A DNA stretch of 64,000 nucleotides from Sulfurisphaera ohwakuensis (GTDB lineage: Archaea > Thermoproteota > Thermoprotei_A > Sulfolobales > Sulfolobaceae). The DNA lies in contig NZ_CP045484.1 of NCBI RefSeq assembly GCF_009729055.1, positions 868,001 through 932,000 on the forward strand, written 5' to 3'. Each line of letters opens with the position of its first letter. The first letter of the stretch is position 1. This document shows, piece by piece, positions 13,469-20,516 of the stretch. Position numbers and translations under genes: made by a program. Under the pieces are notes generated by a model that had not been told where the DNA came from, did no database searches, and was given only the letters and a program-made list of their open reading frames with translations.

Positions 13469-13957
13469 GTGGAAGTTACAAAACCCTGGATTGATGATAA
13501 GAAATATAAACAAGATAGATTGACAGAAGCTAAATATGAGGCTGAACTGGCTAAAAGATTCCTTGAAAACGGATTATTTAGAAATGCCGCAGGTAAAGCT
13601 TTTCAAGCTTGGAAGGCTTTATTGGCAGCTATTTCAGTTGACTATGTGCAAGAGCTTTCTAAATACTTTAAGGGAAAGAAAAGGATGAGGGATGGAAGAA
13701 TAGTTAATTATGCTGAATGGATAATTGCGGTAATGCCGACAAGTAAGATGAGTAGTGTAGCCCAAATACTTGATAGTATAATAGGAAATGATATAGAAGC
13801 TTATACCGATATTGCAATTAAACTACATGAATTTCAATATAATGGATTAGATAAAAGTGGTGAAGTAAGCAGATATCCCTCAATAGAGTTTATGAAAGTG
13901 GACTTGGAAAAGCTTCTAAAGGCAATTGAAAAAATTATTGCTAGCAAAGGATACTGA
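13469..13957 (+). CDS. PaREP1-family protein
   Basis: 162-residue helical protein of the archaeal PaREP1/PaREP8 group, recognised by LAKRFLENGLFRNAAGKAFQ followed by AWKALLAAI. The group is structurally related to HEPN-type helical bundles and is often found multicopy near mobile DNA. GTG start at 13469. Function unknown; no catalytic RxxxxH is obvious. A decayed second copy lies at 57180-57422. It is directly followed by the IS110 element. Confidence 0.82.
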   Translation: MEVTKPWIDDKKYKQDRLTEAKYEAELAKRFLENGLFRNAAGKAFQAWKALLAAISVDYVQELSKYFKGKKRMRDGRIVNYAEWIIAVMPTSKMSSVAQILDSIIGNDIEAYTDIAIKLHEFQYNGLDKSGEVSRYPSIEFMKVDLEKLLKAIEKIIASKGY

Positions 13958-13980
13958 CTTCCTTATATAAAACATATTAG

Positions 13981-14122
13981 TCAGATCTGTGTAATACAGA
14001 TCTGACTGGGGTGTAGGCCGTTGACTTCCTTGGGCTTGAAGCCCGTCGGGGAGCTTGGCCCGCCTCCAATTCGGACCGGAAGTTGGGCAAAAAGCCCGAA
14101 TAAAACATAAGGGTGAGTATAC
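13981..14122 (+). ncRNA. Candidate IS110 bridge RNA / structured leader
   Basis: The roughly 140 bases before the transposase are far more G+C-rich than the surroundings and contain several hairpins: AGATCTGT pairing with ACAGATCT at 13984-14004, CTTGGGCTTGAAGCCCG near 14028, and TTGGGCAAAAAGCCCGAA near 14084. IS110 elements are known to encode a bridge RNA in the left non-coding end, whose loops pair with donor and target DNA. Position and length fit; loops were not assigned. Confidence 0.5.
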
Positions 14123-15068
14123 ATGGAGGCCCCAGTCGCAGGAATAGACGTATCAAAAGATAAATTAGTAGTATATTTCCAAGGCAAATACTACGAGTTT
14201 CCTAATGATAGGCAAGGTTATGAGGAGATAATTAAGATCTTGCCTAAGGGTTGTAAAGTGGGTATTGAAAGTACTGGAATTTACCACATTAACCTAGCAA
14301 AGTACTTGATGGGAGAGTATGACGTTAGGATTATTAATCCCTTCATACTCAAGAAGTTCAAGGACTTTAGGGGTAAGAAGAGTGATAAGAATGATGCTAA
14401 AAAGCTTGCTGAACTAGTTGTAAGTATGGGTAGTGAGTTTACAACAAGTGATGCTAGGGAGTTAACTAGCCAATGGGATTTTGTTGTTAAGAGTATTGCT
14501 AGGGTTAAGAATAGGTTGAGGAGGGATTTGACACTTTTGGGCTATAAGGATAGTTTGTCCAAGAAGAACTTAGAGGAGGTTTTGAGGGGTGGGGATAGTA
14601 TTGTCTTGGTTGAGGTTAGGTTTCTTTTGGAGGAGTTGGAGAGACTTGAGGTTAGGAAGAGGGAGATTGAGGAGAAACTTGAGGATCTTGTTCCCAAGGA
14701 TAGTTTGATTTTCACCATTCCTGGTATTGGTAAAACCTTGGGTTGTATAATTTTGGGTTGGTGATATTAGGCGCTTTAGTGATAAGAAGAGGTTTGTTGC
14801 TTATTGCGGTCTTGACCCAGTTATTGAGTCTAGTGGTAAGAGTGTTGTTTCTAAGGGTATTTCTAAGAGGGGTGATGCTGTTTTGAGGAGAGCTTTCTAT
14901 CTTGCAGCTTTAACTGCTATTAGGGTTAATCCTGTTATCAAGCGTTTTTATGAAGAGCATAAGGGAAAGTTGAAGGGTAAGAAGTTGATTATTGCCTGTG
15001 CAAGGAAATTAGCTGTTATTACTTGGGCTGTGCTGTATTATAATAAACCATTTGATGCTAGCGAGTGA
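14123..15068 (+). pseudogene. IS110-family DEDD transposase, frameshifted
   Basis: The N-terminal RuvC-like part is complete with D9 (VAGIDVSKDKL), E49 (VGIESTGIYH), D88 and D91 (SDKNDAKKLAEL). The coiled region and PGIGKTLGCIILG of the C-terminal domain follow, then the frame ends in a stop at 14764. Another frame continues from about 14757 with GDIRRFSDKKRFVAYCGLDP, SSGKSVVSKGISKRGDAVLR and the final helices to TGA at 15068. The join needs a few bases restored (the sequence around ATTTTGGGTTGGTGATATT looks like a 5-base loss from an EIGDI-type junction). The copy is probably unable to transpose by itself. Confidence 0.88.
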
Positions 15069-15129
15069 TAAGGAGAGCCTTACTTTTCCATAAGTAGTGT
15101 AGACTATGCTCGATTTTTCATGGAAAGGT

Positions 15130-15478
15130 TTTTATACCGGAAGCTCCCCACCCTGGAAGGGTCGGGGGTTCCCTTCCAGAGGGTTCATCGTTCCCACCAT
15201 CGATTCGGGATTACATCTCTCATTTGGTGGGCAGTCGGGTGGGGCAGAGACCCACCCCAAAATTAGAGTAGGGGATCCGTCATCCATATTGTCCGAATCC
15301 CGTGAAAGAGAGAAGAGGAATGATAGTTGCCCCTCCCTCAGTCCCATTAAGCCCCCAATCGAGCTGGGGAAGAGCGTCATTAACATCACTAAAAGATATC
15401 TCGATAAAGGGGTATATAAATATAAGGGGGCTATCCATCTCCACCCTGAAGAGTGAAGCTTTCCGCCCCCTTAACCCT
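15130..15478 (-). mobile_element. Non-autonomous (MITE-like) derivative of a TnpB element
   Basis: G+C-rich, highly structured block of about 350 bases. On the minus strand it begins with a left end like that of the TnpB element at 8306-9634 (GGGTTAAGGGGGCGGAAAGC, then GGAGATGGATAGCCCCC). It finishes with its right-end hairpin (GACCCTTCCAGGGTGGGG then AGCTTCC). The segment before the right end still encodes a TnpB-like C-terminal tail (VGTMNPLEGNPRPFQGGE). Inside are strong stems: CTGGAAGGG with CCCTTCCAG (15154-15180), CGGGATT with AATCCCG, GGTGGG with CCCACC. It keeps the guide-RNA end but no nuclease. Confidence 0.65.
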
Positions 15479-15648
15479 CATTTTGTAATTAAGGGACATA
15501 TAAGGATTTTTATTATGGCTTCCTCTTATAATCATTCATTTACTTATCCTAGGAATAAAAGGGGACTATTCTAATTCTTCTCTTATAAAATAAGCAGAAT
15601 ATAACACTTAACTAACCTTAAGACTATGTGGGATAAATTTGCGTAAGT

Positions 15649-15884
15649 GGACTGAATCCTTTTTCATATTGATAGAAATATTTTTATATTTTCGTTTATT
15701 TTACATTTCTATGGTGGAAATTATCTCTCATGCTGATGTGGGCTATGCCCAAGAGGATGAAAATTGCAGAGATGTGAGCCCCGTGCCGTTGGGCTCAAAG
15801 GAGTCCCATGACCCACATGTAGGTTGTTGAGGGCTAAGTCCCTACACTCAATCATGATTGAAATGAAGGTGTAGGGACAAACGG
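15649..15884 (+). mobile_element. Internally deleted IS607 (ISC1904-like) derivative
   Basis: 236 bases that carry both ends of the IS607 element found at 55148-57072. The left end is GGACTGAATCCTTTTTCA and the right end GGTGTAGGGACAAACGG. The last 120 bases match the 3' part of that element's tnpB, including codons for DVSPVPLGSKESHDP and the following hairpin region. TnpA and most of TnpB are gone. What is kept is exactly the region expected to make the TnpB guide RNA. Confidence 0.72.
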
Positions 15885-15920
15885 AAAAAAGTAATAAGCT
15901 GGGGATTCATAATATATAGT

Positions 15921-16145
15921 ATGGGCTACGTTGTAAAAGTTGATGATAGAGGTCGAATAAAACTTCCTAAAAACCTAGCTAATGCCGACTCAGTAATAAT
16001 TATTAATGCTGGAACTTTCTTCATTGGCATTCCTATTCCCAAGGAGCCTCTAGCTGAAACTTCTGGCATAATTGAAACCAAACTTAGTATTAAGGAGTTG
16101 AAAGAGATTGCTGAAAACGACGCATTAGGAAGGCACTCAAAATGA
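15921..16145 (+). CDS. vapB: AbrB/SpoVT-type antitoxin (VapB)
   Basis: 74 residues beginning MGYVVKVDDRGRIKLPKNLA, the swapped-hairpin AbrB DNA-binding fold, with a C-terminal toxin-binding tail (ETSGIIETKLSIKELKEIAE). The stop overlaps the start of the next frame (AAATGATG), the standard VapBC layout. The antitoxin is intact while its toxin is broken. Confidence 0.82.
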   Translation: MGYVVKVDDRGRIKLPKNLANADSVIIINAGTFFIGIPIPKEPLAETSGIIETKLSIKELKEIAENDALGRHSK

Positions 16146-16557
16146 TGATAGAGAGTGACATTTTCTTAGTATAAAGTCTAACTATAGGCTTAAAACAGCG
16201 ACAGAAACAATTCTTTTAAGAATAGCTAAAGGAGAATTGAGAGTAGTAGCTTCTAGAGAAGTATTTCATGAACTTTATTATGTTTTAAGGAATATGAATT
16301 TATCTCTACAAGATATACTCCTAAAACTTGGTGCATTAAAAAGCATACCTAACATAGAATGGATTCCTACTACCGTAAATATGGATCTTCTCGCAATATC
16401 TTCGACGCATCAATACGGTATATCCTCAGTATTCGATTCTTATTATGTAGCATCTTGCTTATTATACGATAAGGATAAGACCATAATTTCCACAGATCAC
16501 GTATTCGATAAAGTAGCTGGAATCAAAAGAATAGACCCAGGGGATTTTTTAAAGTGA
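16142..16557 (+). pseudogene. VapC PIN-domain toxin, frameshifted
   Basis: Starts at ATG 16142 with MMIESDIFLV, where Asp is the first PIN catalytic residue, but meets a stop after ten codons. A different frame continues with KSNYRLKTATETILLRIAKG and runs to TGA at 16557. It includes EVFHELYYVLR (second acid) and SSVFDSYYVASCLL and STDHVFDK (third and fourth acids). One or two bases are missing around 16170. The downstream half alone lacks the first Asp, so no active nuclease is expected. Confidence 0.8.
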
Positions 16558-16887
16558 GGGAAAAACAGAAAAATGAAAACCTTGTTTTAGCTTTCTTTAG
16601 CGTTAAAACCTATGGCTAAAATTCATGAATGGAACAACCTAAGGTGTTTATATAATATCCATTAATTCCTAATGGTACAATTAATATCACACTATGATGG
16701 AAACTCAAAATACTTCTGGTTTGTTAATCCGTTTAATTTACTTTATAAAAATAATGCAATAGAATTTTTCTGTAACTAAATCAAAAAGGAGTTAATCGGA
16801 AAAATAAAGCTTAACTTCAATAAACTTACTATAATCGCAAAATTTACGATAGATAGACATATATGTGGTTAAAGTAAGATTTTATTA
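16558..16887. other. 330-bp gap without recognisable gene
   Basis: A+T-rich, no long frame on either strand. A weak AAATTTACGATAG...TTTTATTA stretch just before 16888 may hold the promoter of the next gene; otherwise nothing is recognised. Confidence 0.4.
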
Positions 16888-17985
16888 ATGGAAGAGGGAA
16901 TACTTGACATAAAATACTACGATATGAATACTTGGAATGAATATTTTAACCAAGACGTGTTAAGGCTATATGAAGCTACAGTTAAGTTCTTGAAAATTTA
17001 TGAACAAGTTAAAAATCTCTCTGGTAAGAATGCAGTGGACTTAATAAAGGACGAGGGATATAAAACTATATTACTCGGTGGTGTGGAAGAAGATGGAAGT
17101 TTTACTGAGTTAAGCGCGTCAAAGTTTTACAGAGATATGTTTGGGCTTGACTTTGACGTGAATGCAGTAATCTCCGCTATTAAGGTTGGAGAGAACATTA
17201 ATGTGCCTATACAATTTGAGGAAAATGAGTTATATAAGAAGGTTCTTAACATTTACTCTAATCTGGATTTCATCCTCAATACAAAAGGGATAAGTAAGCC
17301 TAACGTTTCTTCTCCTCCAATAACTGACTATCGTAGTGTGCTGGAGACCCTTAAGGAGTTTGAGGAAACTTCACTAAGTTTTCTGAGCATTTATAATCCT
17401 AAAACCTTCTTTGTAACAAGTTTGAGAGGCACAACGTTAAAAGCCTTCAAACTTGCGTACCCCAAATTTAACGAGGAAATAATGAAACTGTTTGGCTTAA
17501 GTAAAATACTAGAAATAAGTTATTTACCAGACCAAAAAAAGGAATACACAATCTGGGGCTATGCTGATATGGTTAACGTAACTCTTAACTTAAATGACCA
17601 AGTAATGGGTACAAGTATTGGTTCAGCAATTATGGTAATAGACCATAAAATCTCTGAACTTTTTGGAGCGCCTTTAACTTATTACACTAAGTTAGATAGG
17701 GATGTTAAAGATGATTATAGAAGACTATTTTCTAATATAAAGCCCTTATTTAAAGGTGATAAAGATTATGAGAATTTTGGATGTTTAATTGAGAAGTTTA
17801 ATGTCCATTGTAGCTATCGCTATACGTCTAAAGGTATTTATTTCAGTAATCATTATGGAAATAATCTTATAAATTTCCTAAACGATATTGGATTATTACT
17901 TATTTATGTATATCAAATACGACATTTGGATATTGAAAGAAATGATCGGATTAGTATAGGGCTGGCATGTTATCTAGATATCTAG
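16888..17985 (+). CDS. Hypothetical protein, first gene of an accessory two-gene cassette
   Basis: 365 residues, not recognised. Mixed alpha/beta, no signal peptide and no clear membrane segment. Distinct spots are LILLGG-like KTILLGGVEEDGSF near residue 55, EFEETSLSFLSIYNPKTFFV near 165 and IWGYADMVNVTLNLNDQVMG near 222. It lies 26 bases before the PD-(D/E)XK-like gene and in the same orientation, so they are probably co-transcribed. The pair is flanked by toxin-antitoxin debris on the left and IS ends on the right, typical of defence or plasmid-derived cargo. Confidence 0.7.
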   Translation: MEEGILDIKYYDMNTWNEYFNQDVLRLYEATVKFLKIYEQVKNLSGKNAVDLIKDEGYKTILLGGVEEDGSFTELSASKFYRDMFGLDFDVNAVISAIKVGENINVPIQFEENELYKKVLNIYSNLDFILNTKGISKPNVSSPPITDYRSVLETLKEFEETSLSFLSIYNPKTFFVTSLRGTTLKAFKLAYPKFNEEIMKLFGLSKILEISYLPDQKKEYTIWGYADMVNVTLNLNDQVMGTSIGSAIMVIDHKISELFGAPLTYYTKLDRDVKDDYRRLFSNIKPLFKGDKDYENFGCLIEKFNVHCSYRYTSKGIYFSNHYGNNLINFLNDIGLLLIYVYQIRHLDIERNDRISIGLACYLDI

Positions 17986-18011
17986 ATACTCTCTCCTCAA
18001 GGTGTTGAGCC

Positions 18012-19553
18012 ATGGAAAGCAGAAAGGAAGAAAGAAATGAAAGTTTTATCCTAACAGAAGATGTAAAGGTCCGACAAGAGAAGAAATTAAGAATAGAACA
18101 AAAAGCCACGGTCTCTTCAGAAACCCAGCCCTCTGTCACAGCAACTTTAACTCTCCAATTCCCACTACCTCCTAAAGTTATGAGTGTAGGAGAGCTTGAT
18201 ACACAATTCAAAATAGCTGAGCATAATCCTACACCCATAAAGTTATCATTTCCTCAAAAACCTATCGTTACAGTGAACTCATTAGATACGACATTCTCGA
18301 TCTCCGAAATTTCAGTACCTATTCAGAAACTCCACTTTCAGCCACCCCCTACTGTCATGATTAGTTCACTAGACATCTCCTTTAAGGTTGATGAGGAGAA
18401 AGTCAAATTACCTAAGTTGTTCTTCCCTCCCAAAGTAACCGTTTCAGTATCTTCATTAGATGTCTCATTAAGTTCTAAACTAACTACCTTCGAAAGGAAC
18501 GATAAGGAGCTCCTCGAGAGTAAAAAGAAAGACGTTAGATTAGATGTTGATTTCCTTAATAATTTCTTTTCACTTACATCATCAATTATAGATGTAACTA
18601 ACGGTACAATACTAATTGTTTATGATGAAAACAAACCTGGGATTGAGGATTCCTTAAAATATATAGCTACTGAGATTGCATTATTTCACGGATATGAGAC
18701 TAATCCAATAACAATTTCTAGTGTTAGTGACTTAACTAGAATAGAGTTAAAGGATGTAGGGACTAGGTCTGGTATTTTCGTATTAAAGAAGGATTTGTGT
18801 AATTCAATTCAGGAAATTGAGAATATTCTATTTGATTCGCTTAATGGTATAAGCGGTTATAAGTATTCAATAATTATTATGCCTAAATGTCTTTATAATA
18901 CCTTATCTCCTAAAATATTATTTAAACCTAAGAGGATTGTAATAGAGAAATTAACAAGAGAAGAAATATCAACATTAGCCTACTTAGCATCTGGTTTTCA
19001 ATTAGATTGGAAGGGTTATGATGCGTTAGATAGAACAAGACAAATGTTTGAGGATCTTCTAAGCTCAGCTAGAAGATGGTTGAGGAGAAATTACATTAGC
19101 TTAGATATTCCTAACTTAGGTAATGAGACGGACTTACACAGAAATTTGAAGGCCTTTATATTAAAACATCTGATAGAAAATGAAAAAATAGATGGAAAGA
19201 GTATTTATGTCGAAAGTTATATAGGTAACTTAAAGCCTGATATATATGTTATTGATAGGAATTTAGCAATCGACGCTAAGACTAGTATTGGTCATTTACC
19301 TAGTGATGAGCTATTAGATGTTCAGAAATATGCTGGATTTGCAAAGAGTATTTGGGCTGTTATGAGACCTATTGCAGTCCTTTTAGATTTAGATGGTATT
19401 ATAGGAAGGCTAAAAGACTCTGATAGGCAAGGAATAGATATGGAAGTACTGATCCCAGTAAAGGATAAACTTGTAACGTTAGAAGAATTCATAAACGAAG
19501 GTAAGAAATATATGGCAGAACTCTTACAAGGCGGAAGAAGGGCTAAACCATAA
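18012..19553 (+). CDS. Repeat-containing protein with C-terminal PD-(D/E)XK-like nuclease domain
   Basis: 513 residues. Residues 45-157 hold four units of about 29 residues with the pattern KLxFPPKPxVxVxSLDxxFxI (SVGELDTQFKIAE, VNSLDTTFSISE, ISSLDISFKVDE, VSSLDVSLSSK), a beta-rich adhesive or scaffold module. The middle (about 175-380) is alpha/beta of unknown type. Residues 390-440 carry KPDIYVIDRNLAIDAKTSIG, with Asp410, Asp421 and Lys423 in the spacing of a PD-(D/E)XK nuclease, preceded by a helix with HRNLKAFILKHL. A restriction- or repair-like DNA nuclease is the best guess. Paired with the upstream unknown gene. Confidence 0.72.
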   Translation: MESRKEERNESFILTEDVKVRQEKKLRIEQKATVSSETQPSVTATLTLQFPLPPKVMSVGELDTQFKIAEHNPTPIKLSFPQKPIVTVNSLDTTFSISEISVPIQKLHFQPPPTVMISSLDISFKVDEEKVKLPKLFFPPKVTVSVSSLDVSLSSKLTTFERNDKELLESKKKDVRLDVDFLNNFFSLTSSIIDVTNGTILIVYDENKPGIEDSLKYIATEIALFHGYETNPITISSVSDLTRIELKDVGTRSGIFVLKKDLCNSIQEIENILFDSLNGISGYKYSIIIMPKCLYNTLSPKILFKPKRIVIEKLTREEISTLAYLASGFQLDWKGYDALDRTRQMFEDLLSSARRWLRRNYISLDIPNLGNETDLHRNLKAFILKHLIENEKIDGKSIYVESYIGNLKPDIYVIDRNLAIDAKTSIGHLPSDELLDVQKYAGFAKSIWAVMRPIAVLLDLDGIIGRLKDSDRQGIDMEVLIPVKDKLVTLEEFINEGKKYMAELLQGGRRAKP

Positions 19554-19689
19554 GATGAACGATTAGAATTTTATTATAAATTGTGTAAAATTCTATGAAT
19601 AACTGACTTCTCTCCAACCTGAACAGTTGCTCTGATCGCTTTATTAACCATCCTAGCCATTAAAGAAACTTAGGAAAACTCATAATTTA

Positions 19690-19740
19690 AATATAAAAGG
19701 GCTATCCATCTCCTTTGCGAAGCTTTCCGCCCCCTCTTTG
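19690..19740 (-). mobile_element. Solo left end of a TnpB-type element
   Basis: GGGCTATCCATCTCC followed by GCGAAGCTTTCCGCCCCCT is the same end sequence as at 15425-15470 (minus-strand sense). No nuclease gene or right end is attached, so this is a remnant. Confidence 0.55.
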
Positions 19741-19744
19741 TAAA

Positions 19745-19763
19745 ATGAATTTGGAGTCTAGGG
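19745..19763 (-). repeat. Solo terminal inverted repeat of the ISH3-like element
   Basis: ATGAATTTGGAGTCTAGGG matches the terminal repeat of the element at 37322-38460 (CCCTAGACCCCAAATTCAT when complemented) with one difference. It directly abuts the solo TnpB left end, showing repeated insertion and loss at this spot. Confidence 0.55.
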
Positions 19764-20253
19764 TATAACTTACTAATCGCGTTATAACTGTGTGTAATGA
19801 ATAACCATATAAAAATAAAAAAAAATTATATAATTCGGTATATATTTGATAATAAATTAATATTTAACGTGCAAAATCTAAACAGTTAATGTTTAAATAC
19901 GTTATAATTGACTCTCTTTATCAAGATCGAAAAATATAATAAGCAATAACCTTTAAGTAACTATTCAAAAATTTCATATTAATATTACATTTAAAGTAAG
20001 ATTTATTAAGTAAGTGATTAAACATAAAAATTAGTTTAAGTCTGAGCTTTAAATATAAAACCTTGCTACTAAGAATCAAGCATACTTCGCATTATTTACG
20101 CAAGTAACACGAATTACTTTTTTAGACTGTTTTCAAGGGTGTGTTCTCAAATAATCATAAAATTAGAAAAATATTTGTAAAATTATAATTAATCACAAAT
20201 TTTTATTGAATTAACTTAGAAATCAATAAGATTAGATCGTGAGGACTTACATC

Positions 20254-20516
20254 ATGGAGAGTTATAATTCTTATTATAGGGCTAACCTGATTAGACTAGC
20301 AACGGATAATAAGGCTGTTAATAGGAATGAGAGATTGGTTAAGTATAGTCTTGCCTTACTAAACGTCATTTAGCCCGTAATTTATCCAAAGAGAGAAGAT
20401 TCAGTATATCCTATGAGGACATCAATAAATATAATTTACTCCTATGCGAAATTTCAAGACTCATAGAAGTCTATGATCTATTAAGTAATTTTTACCTAGA
20501 CTCTCCCTATTTTTAG
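20254..20516 (+). pseudogene. Small frameshifted gene of unknown function
   Basis: ATG at 20254 opens a 39-codon frame (MESYNSYYRANLIRLATDNK to LLNVI). At about 20362 a second frame continues it (RHLARNLSKERRFSISYEDI...IEVYDLLSNF) to TAG at 20514. A single missing base would join them into an 87-residue helical, basic protein. Family not recognised. The rest of 19764-20643 holds A+T-rich sequence with no other gene. Confidence 0.5.

What the first reader, a model, noticed from the sequence alone, without database searches (positions are those of the whole stretch)
16888..19553. Unrecognised two-gene cassette with a repeat module and PD-(D/E)XK-like domain
Seen: two adjacent genes, neither of a family I recognise. 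The second has four 29-residue beta-type repeats (SLDxxFxI core) and a late D-x10-DxK motif. It sits between a decayed VapBC and IS ends, the usual setting for defence cargo. A partner protein plus repeat-bearing nuclease could be an anti-virus or anti-plasmid system.
Basis: partly seen in the sequence, partly recalled or inferred. Interest (0 to 1): 0.65.

Follow-up and report, generated by a model that had tools for sequence, protein, structure and literature searches.

The report
Unrecognised archaeal two-gene nuclease module
Two adjacent genes found together across many heat-loving archaea, one carrying a DNA-cutting-enzyme fold and the other matching no described protein family, form a mobile unit that current catalogues of antiviral systems miss; it most likely acts against invading DNA, but no activity has been tested.

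Summary
Gene A (16888-17985, 365 aa) and gene B (18012-19553, 513 aa) are real, matched by no Pfam, NCBIfam, PADLOC or PDB-sequence entry. They form one unit: in 398 Thermoproteota genomes A occurs in 38, B in 36 and both in 32 (Fisher p about 1e-36). They lie A then B on one strand, gap -62 to +128 bp, in 32 of 38 pairings. B's C-terminus is a PD-(D/E)XK nuclease domain: AlphaFold2 gives the alpha-beta3-alpha-beta core (pLDDT about 90), E372/H376/K380/E401/D410 are near-invariant across relatives, and D421-x-K423 is kept (16 members) or replaced by E-x-E (23). B also has a significant 29-residue repeat and an AAA+-like middle domain without Walker A. A is helical, with no known relative. The unit is patchy, decays often, and differs between near-identical species (Rpb2 99% identical, A/B 52-53%). 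Some copies sit beside pAgo, a TmtA-like HSP90/NOV_C gene, CARF-PIN, HerA-NurA or a methyltransferase, though a control set was not clearly poorer in defence genes. Best reading: an unrecognised nuclease-effector conflict or defence module. The nuclease fold is near certain; the defence role is inferred (about 0.55).

The parts
16860..16865 (+). TATA-box-like TATATG about 26 bp before the ATG of gene A (leaderless-type archaeal promoter, inferred)
   Evidence: sequence; inference from known Sulfolobales promoters, not tested
16888..17985 (+). Gene A, 365 aa partner protein of a family without database relatives; predicted helical N-terminal half; conserved LLGGV, YNPRTFF and SLxG motifs
18012..19553 (+). 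Gene B, 513 aa: repeat module, AAA+-like middle domain, PD-(D/E)XK domain; start preceded by GGTG (possible internal Shine-Dalgarno)
18150..18500 (+). Four 29-30 residue repeats of B (residues 47-163), FPxPPxVxxSSLDxxFxI type
   Evidence: 0/2000 shuffles; relatives with significant periods of 29-35 in the same region
18543..19046 (+). B middle domain (residues 178-345): beta/alpha Rossmann-like, AAA+-like topology with a lid-like LAYLASGF helix; no Walker A motif
   Evidence: AAA+ top matches, low TM-scores; weak profile support; no P-loop in 52 members
19104..19526 (+). B C-terminal PD-(D/E)XK nuclease-like domain (residues 365-505)
19239..19280 (+). Catalytic signature D410-x10-D421-x-K423
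13954..15488 (+). Upstream multi-copy insertion-sequence DNA with a broken transposase
15649..15889 (.). Upstream short multi-copy element (MITE-like)
15921..16557 (+). VapB-like ORF followed by a decayed PIN (VapC-like) frame
   Evidence: family named from sequence appearance, not scanned
19622..20399 (.). Downstream non-coding stretch holding three segments that match repeats in related genomes (19622-19735, 19793-20009, 20245-20399)

Best explanation
A and B are one functional unit: a mobile, two-gene conflict or defence module of Thermoproteota whose effector is a metal-dependent PD-(D/E)XK nuclease. SHOWN: pairing, operon arrangement, irregular distribution, and (by confident prediction) the nuclease fold with intact catalytic residues. 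INFERRED: A, and possibly the AAA+-like domain without P-loop and the repeat array of B, hold or position the nuclease and respond to foreign DNA or its replication, after which B cuts nucleic acid and blocks the invader or kills the host cell. The repeat region is the most likely docking surface for A: the two relatives whose repeat region is replaced by unrelated sequence lack any detectable A gene in their genomes.
For: Pairing: both in 32 of 398 genomes against 38 A and 36 B, Fisher p = 9e-37; 32 of 38 pairings lie on one strand within 150 bp; A and B distances correlate (Mantel-type Spearman 0.52, 0/2000 permutations). Nuclease: alpha-beta3-alpha-beta order and pLDDT mostly 85-95 for residues 345-500; near-invariance of E372, H376, K380, E401, D410 and D-x-K / E-x-E census; profile match to archaeal Hjc at p = 0.0011 with PDI and D/E-x-K aligned, the best score among about 40 control families (next 0.035). 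Mobility: Rpb2 identity 99% (G003) and 90% (G011) against B 52% and 65-71%, A 53% and 73%; same-genus G002 has none; in G003 the pair lies about 0.8 Mb from the DNA matching the window's upstream flank; IS/MITE flanks. Only A and B are conserved between loci. Decayed copies in G001 and G006. Defence neighbours: G032 has divergent pAgo, then A, B and a TmtA-like HSP90-ATPase/NOV_C gene 2-3 bp apart; G022 has CARF-PIN about 100 bp after B; G284 and G134 have HerA and NurA nearby; G174 has a type II methyltransferase. Repeat/A link.
Against: The sampled neighbourhood scan (130 neighbours against 130 control genes) is not clean enrichment: controls included a CRISPR type III locus and HerA genes, and PADLOC hits include generic ATPases. 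In genus g18 (three species) A and B sit at two separate conserved chromosomal places beside housekeeping genes, and A stands alone in conserved context in G055/G321 and G325/G339/G052, which fits a cellular role better. No viral, phage or plasmid relatives were found. The swapped-N-terminus argument rests on two genomes, one with a frameshifted B. A sequence-only precedent in this order misled: an archaeal OLD-family nuclease proved to act in the cell cycle, not defence (PMC12796447).
Confidence: 0.55

Rival explanations
1. DNA repair, recombination or chromosome maintenance: B is a structure-specific nuclease (Hjc-like active site) and A its adaptor, an accessory housekeeping function passed around horizontally.
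For: Closest tested profile is Hjc; A and B occupy fixed chromosomal positions in three species of genus g18 and A does so in other genera; HerA-NurA lies nearby in some genomes; archaeal OLD nuclease Cran1 turned out to be cell-cycle related (PMC12796447).
Against: Absent from about 90% of sampled Thermoproteota genomes, including same-genus G002; very divergent between near-identical species; frequent decay; neighbours otherwise not conserved.
Confidence: 0.22
2. Toxin-antitoxin or addiction pair: B is a nuclease toxin, A its neutralising partner, maintained by post-segregational killing.
For: Two-gene operon with overlapping or nearly touching frames, mobile, patchy, decays often, next to a VapBC remnant in the window.
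Against: Both proteins are unusually large for a TA pair; A is missing in two genomes that keep a B with a swapped N-terminus; B is kept away from A in genus g18.
Confidence: 0.13
3. B's PD-(D/E)XK domain is catalytically dead and only binds nucleic acid; the pair is regulatory or structural.
For: The D-x-K pair is replaced by E-x-E in most non-Sulfolobales members, so the usual lysine is lost there.
Against: All other acidic positions plus H376 and K380 are near-invariant, the window protein keeps D-x-K, and E-x-E occurs in active restriction enzymes such as BamHI (own knowledge).
Confidence: 0.1

Closest known systems
PD-(D/E)XK nuclease superfamily (Hjc archaeal Holliday-junction resolvase the closest of the profiles tested)
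   Same: Core order alpha-beta-beta-beta-alpha-beta; PDI ... D/E-x-K strands align in register with Hjc; helix-borne conserved E as in many members
   Different: Much larger multidomain protein with extra invariant H376 and K380; no curated family matches; no evidence of junction specificity
CoiA nuclease-like domain (PF06054)
   Same: ExxxHxxxK helix followed by PD and D/E-x-K/Q resembles the CoiA pattern (from memory); one of 39 members hit it at E = 0.22
   Different: Not a significant match; CoiA_nuc is essentially absent from the phylum; different architecture
Classic-clade AAA+ ATPases (NSF, p97, FtsH)
   Same: Foldseek ranks AAA+ folds first for B in PDB and high in viral libraries; order of strands and a lid-like helix fit
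   Different: No Walker A in any of 52 members; TM-scores about 0.2 and profile comparison weak; if related, an inactive derivative
Known nuclease-effector defence systems (e.g. Gabija, CARF-nucleases, short pAgo operons)
   Same: Compact mobile operon with a nuclease and a partner, sometimes next to pAgo, CARF-PIN or HerA genes
   Different: No PADLOC model matches A or B meaningfully; no recognisable signal sensor, CARF, PIWI or active ATPase

Membership tests
PD-(D/E)XK nuclease superfamily | alpha-beta3-alpha-beta core | tested here: met
   AlphaFold2 helices/strands H374-390, E398-400, E411-413, E418-423, H430-438, E446-451 at pLDDT about 85-95
PD-(D/E)XK nuclease superfamily | Acidic residue of the second strand (PD) and (D/E)-x-K (or E-x-E) of the third strand conserved | tested here: met
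   D410 in 41 of 44 long rows (2 gaps); D-x-K 16, E-x-E 23, E-x-K 1
PD-(D/E)XK nuclease superfamily | Profile similarity to a known member above unrelated families | tested here: inconclusive
   Hjc p = 0.0011, probability only 20%, but best of about 40 and in catalytic register
PD-(D/E)XK nuclease superfamily | Metal-dependent nucleic-acid cleavage | not testable with these tools
   needs purified protein
Hjc (PF01870) | Match to the Hjc family model | tested here: not met
   no Hjc hit for 39 B members in Pfam
AAA+ ATPase | Walker A (GxxxxGK[ST]) | tested here: not met
   absent in all 52 B sequences
AAA+ ATPase | AAA+ fold | tested here: inconclusive
   Foldseek ranks AAA+ first (E 2e-5), TM about 0.2; hhalign p = 0.014 without P-loop register
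Any catalogued defence system (PADLOC 2.0) | Hit to a system protein model | tested here: not met
   no hit for the window proteins; best among 39 B members E = 0.016
Defence system in general | Changes virus or plasmid susceptibility | not testable with these tools
   needs genetics
Defence system in general | Enrichment near known defence genes | tested here: inconclusive
   pAgo, TmtA-like, CARF-PIN, CARF-HEPN, Cas6, MTase near some copies; control set also had a CRISPR locus and HerA
Toxin-antitoxin pair | Toxicity of one gene relieved by the other | not testable with these tools
   needs expression assay

The most novel reading that the evidence does not exclude
A phylum-wide archaeal immune module of a new architecture: an unprecedented sensor/adaptor (A) docks on a repeat array of B; an AAA+-derived domain that has lost ATP binding gates a PD-(D/E)XK nuclease; and in some lineages a protease (HExxH protein overlapping gene A by 4 bp, or a proteasome-like N-terminal-threonine protein next to the pair) releases or activates the nuclease.
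Probability: 0.22. Interest if true: 0.78.

Novelty: new variant of a known kind. Interest (0 to 1): 0.55.

Why it matters
A 2026 census of archaeal immunity reports that Thermoproteota generally show low defence prevalence except for restriction-modification, CRISPR-Cas and Argonautes (PMC12988326). A mobile nuclease module present in roughly one in ten sampled genomes of that phylum but invisible to curated libraries could be part of what such censuses miss. It also offers a test case in genetically tractable Sulfolobales, and a protein family (A) with no known relative.

Tried and rejected
Pfam, NCBIfam, PADLOC and PDB sequence searches with single proteins and with 39-42 member sets: only chance-level hits, nearly all to a single member (the A relatives were not scanned against PADLOC). 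IMG/VR scans with four alignments and tblastn of B in PLSDB and INPHARED: no relatives. Broad alignments could not seed collection scans. DUF234 (the PD-(D/E)XK domain of archaeal STAND ATPases) as the nearest family: profile p 0.04, rejected in favour of Hjc-like. CoiA as the family: not significant and almost absent from the phylum. AAA+ membership: Foldseek favours it but no P-loop and weak profile score, kept only as 'AAA+-like'. Fold search with A: nothing. N-terminal domains of the swapped B proteins as fused A: tested with the A profile, not supported. Defence-island enrichment by sampling: inconclusive. Phyla other than Thermoproteota were not searched.

Full report
OBSERVATION. Upstream of A there is a TATA-like hexamer at the distance expected for a leaderless archaeal transcript; B is preceded by GGTG, as expected for an internal gene of an operon (inference). 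B's N-terminal region repeats with a period of 29 residues (0 of 2000 shuffles as strong). D410-x10-D421-x-K423 is present. IS and MITE-like DNA flank the pair: 13954-15488 recurs about eight times in the same genome and 15649-15889 many times, while 19622-19735, 19793-20009 and 20245-20399 match repeats in related genomes. The PIN frame upstream is interrupted near its start.

NO KNOWN FAMILY. Neither protein, nor 39 B and 42 A relatives scanned one by one, gives a credible match in Pfam or NCBIfam; B and its relatives give none in PADLOC, nor does the window's A; PDB sequences give none.

THE PAIR IS A UNIT. Protein and profile searches found relatives across Sulfolobaceae and across the phylum. 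In a phylum sample of 398 genomes A occurs in 38, B in 36 and both in 32 (p = 9e-37). Of 38 pairings of a B with the nearest same-strand A, 32 lie within 150 bp, always A before B, many overlapping by 1-30 bp; distances of A and B correlate (Spearman 0.52, 0 of 2000 permutations). Beyond A and B, no gene is shared by most loci.

MOBILITY. The window's genome and G003 (same genus) share 99% identity in Rpb2 but 52-53% in A and B; G011, of another genus, shares 90% in Rpb2 but 65-73% in A and B. G002 lacks the pair. DNA matching the window's upstream flank is in G003 about 0.8 Mb from its A-B pair. Several copies are broken: A in G001 and G006, B in G010 and a second copy in G001. Horizontal exchange or long-retained divergent paralogues would both explain this; the first is simpler.

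Across members E372, H376, K380, E401 and D410 are near-invariant; position 421/423 is D-x-K in 16, E-x-E in 23 and E-x-K in 1. The C-terminal profile scores best against archaeal Hjc (p = 0.0011) with PDI and D/E-x-K aligned; the best unrelated control gives 0.035. The absolute probability is low (20%), so the fold claim rests on topology, motif and conservation together. The middle domain (about 178-345) is a beta/alpha domain for which Foldseek lists AAA+ ATPases first or high in two libraries, but TM-scores are about 0.2, profile support is weak and no member has a Walker A motif: at most an inactive AAA+ derivative. The N-terminal repeat region is predicted with low confidence; periods of 29-35 are significant in several relatives and not detectable in others. 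In G028 and G030 the N-terminal region is replaced by unrelated sequence and no A gene is found in the genome. This suggests that the repeat region belongs functionally with A; n = 2.

GENE A. AlphaFold2 gives a helical N-terminal half (pLDDT about 85-95) and an unresolved C-terminal half; no fold match. The strongest motifs are LLGGV, YNPRTFF and SLxG.

CONTEXT. Individual loci are suggestive: G032 carries a divergent pAgo, then A, B and a TmtA-like HSP90-ATPase/NOV_C gene with 2-3 bp spacing; G022 has a CARF-PIN gene about 100 bp after B; G284 and G134 have HerA and NurA nearby. In G284 and both G386 contigs a HExxH-motif protein overlaps gene A by 4 bp. Four loci (G030, G150, G174, G233) have a proteasome-like protein, most with an N-terminal MT. 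A sampled scan of 130 neighbours against 130 control genes was not decisive: neighbours gave pAgo, CARF-HEPN, Cas6, TmtA, methyltransferases and HerA; controls gave one type III CRISPR locus, HerA and many generic ATPases.

READING. The nuclease assignment is strong (my estimate 0.85-0.9). The defence or conflict role is the best overall explanation because of mobility, patchiness, decay, two-gene economy and repeated company of immune genes, but it is an inference. The main counter-evidence is genus g18, where A and B sit at separate, conserved housekeeping-like places, and A-only copies in conserved context in other genera. Precedent warns against over-reading: a Sulfolobales OLD-family nuclease expected to be a defence protein acts in the cell cycle (PMC12796447).

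NOVELTY. I found no description of this pair in the library searches, which cover open-licence papers only. The effector belongs to a known superfamily, so I rate it a new variant of a known kind rather than categorically new; A is without known relatives.

Noticed in passing
L059:8591-9406, L145:5081-5884, L157:2944-3762, L159:8913-9734: A proteasome-like (Ntn hydrolase, mostly MT start) protein lies next to the A-B pair or B in four distant genomes; Pfam Proteasome E = 0.0038, below cut-off.
   Followed up: partly
L133:2550-3437, L134:1736-2623, L156:5000-5884, L148:16276-17151: A 291-295 aa HExxH-motif protein of no Pfam family overlaps gene A by 4 bp in three contigs and, in G134, overlaps an AAA/STAND-like gene instead.
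   Followed up: partly
L049:6298-7977, L059:5854-8493: B proteins whose repeat region is replaced by 430-560 aa of unrelated sequence, in genomes without gene A.
   Followed up: yes
L137, L138, L139, L146, L147, L150: In three species of one genus A and B are unlinked, each in its own conserved chromosomal neighbourhood (one of the three also has an adjacent A-B pair, L063).
   Followed up: partly
L067, L130, L068, L131, L132, L136: Stand-alone A genes without B beside them; those in L067/L130 and L131/L132/L136 share conserved chromosomal context.
   Followed up: no
L157:5641-7960, L161:3547-7032: Two or three A paralogues in a row before a single B.
   Followed up: no
L064:8620-9246, L160:242-1048, L141:7333-7977: A 208-268 aa protein before B, winged-helix-like in L064; the L141 member matches the A profile weakly (E 9e-7), possibly a split or duplicated A module.
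   Followed up: no
window 13954-15488 and 15649-15889: Multi-copy IS with a broken transposase and a MITE-like element with many copies in the same genome.
   Followed up: partly
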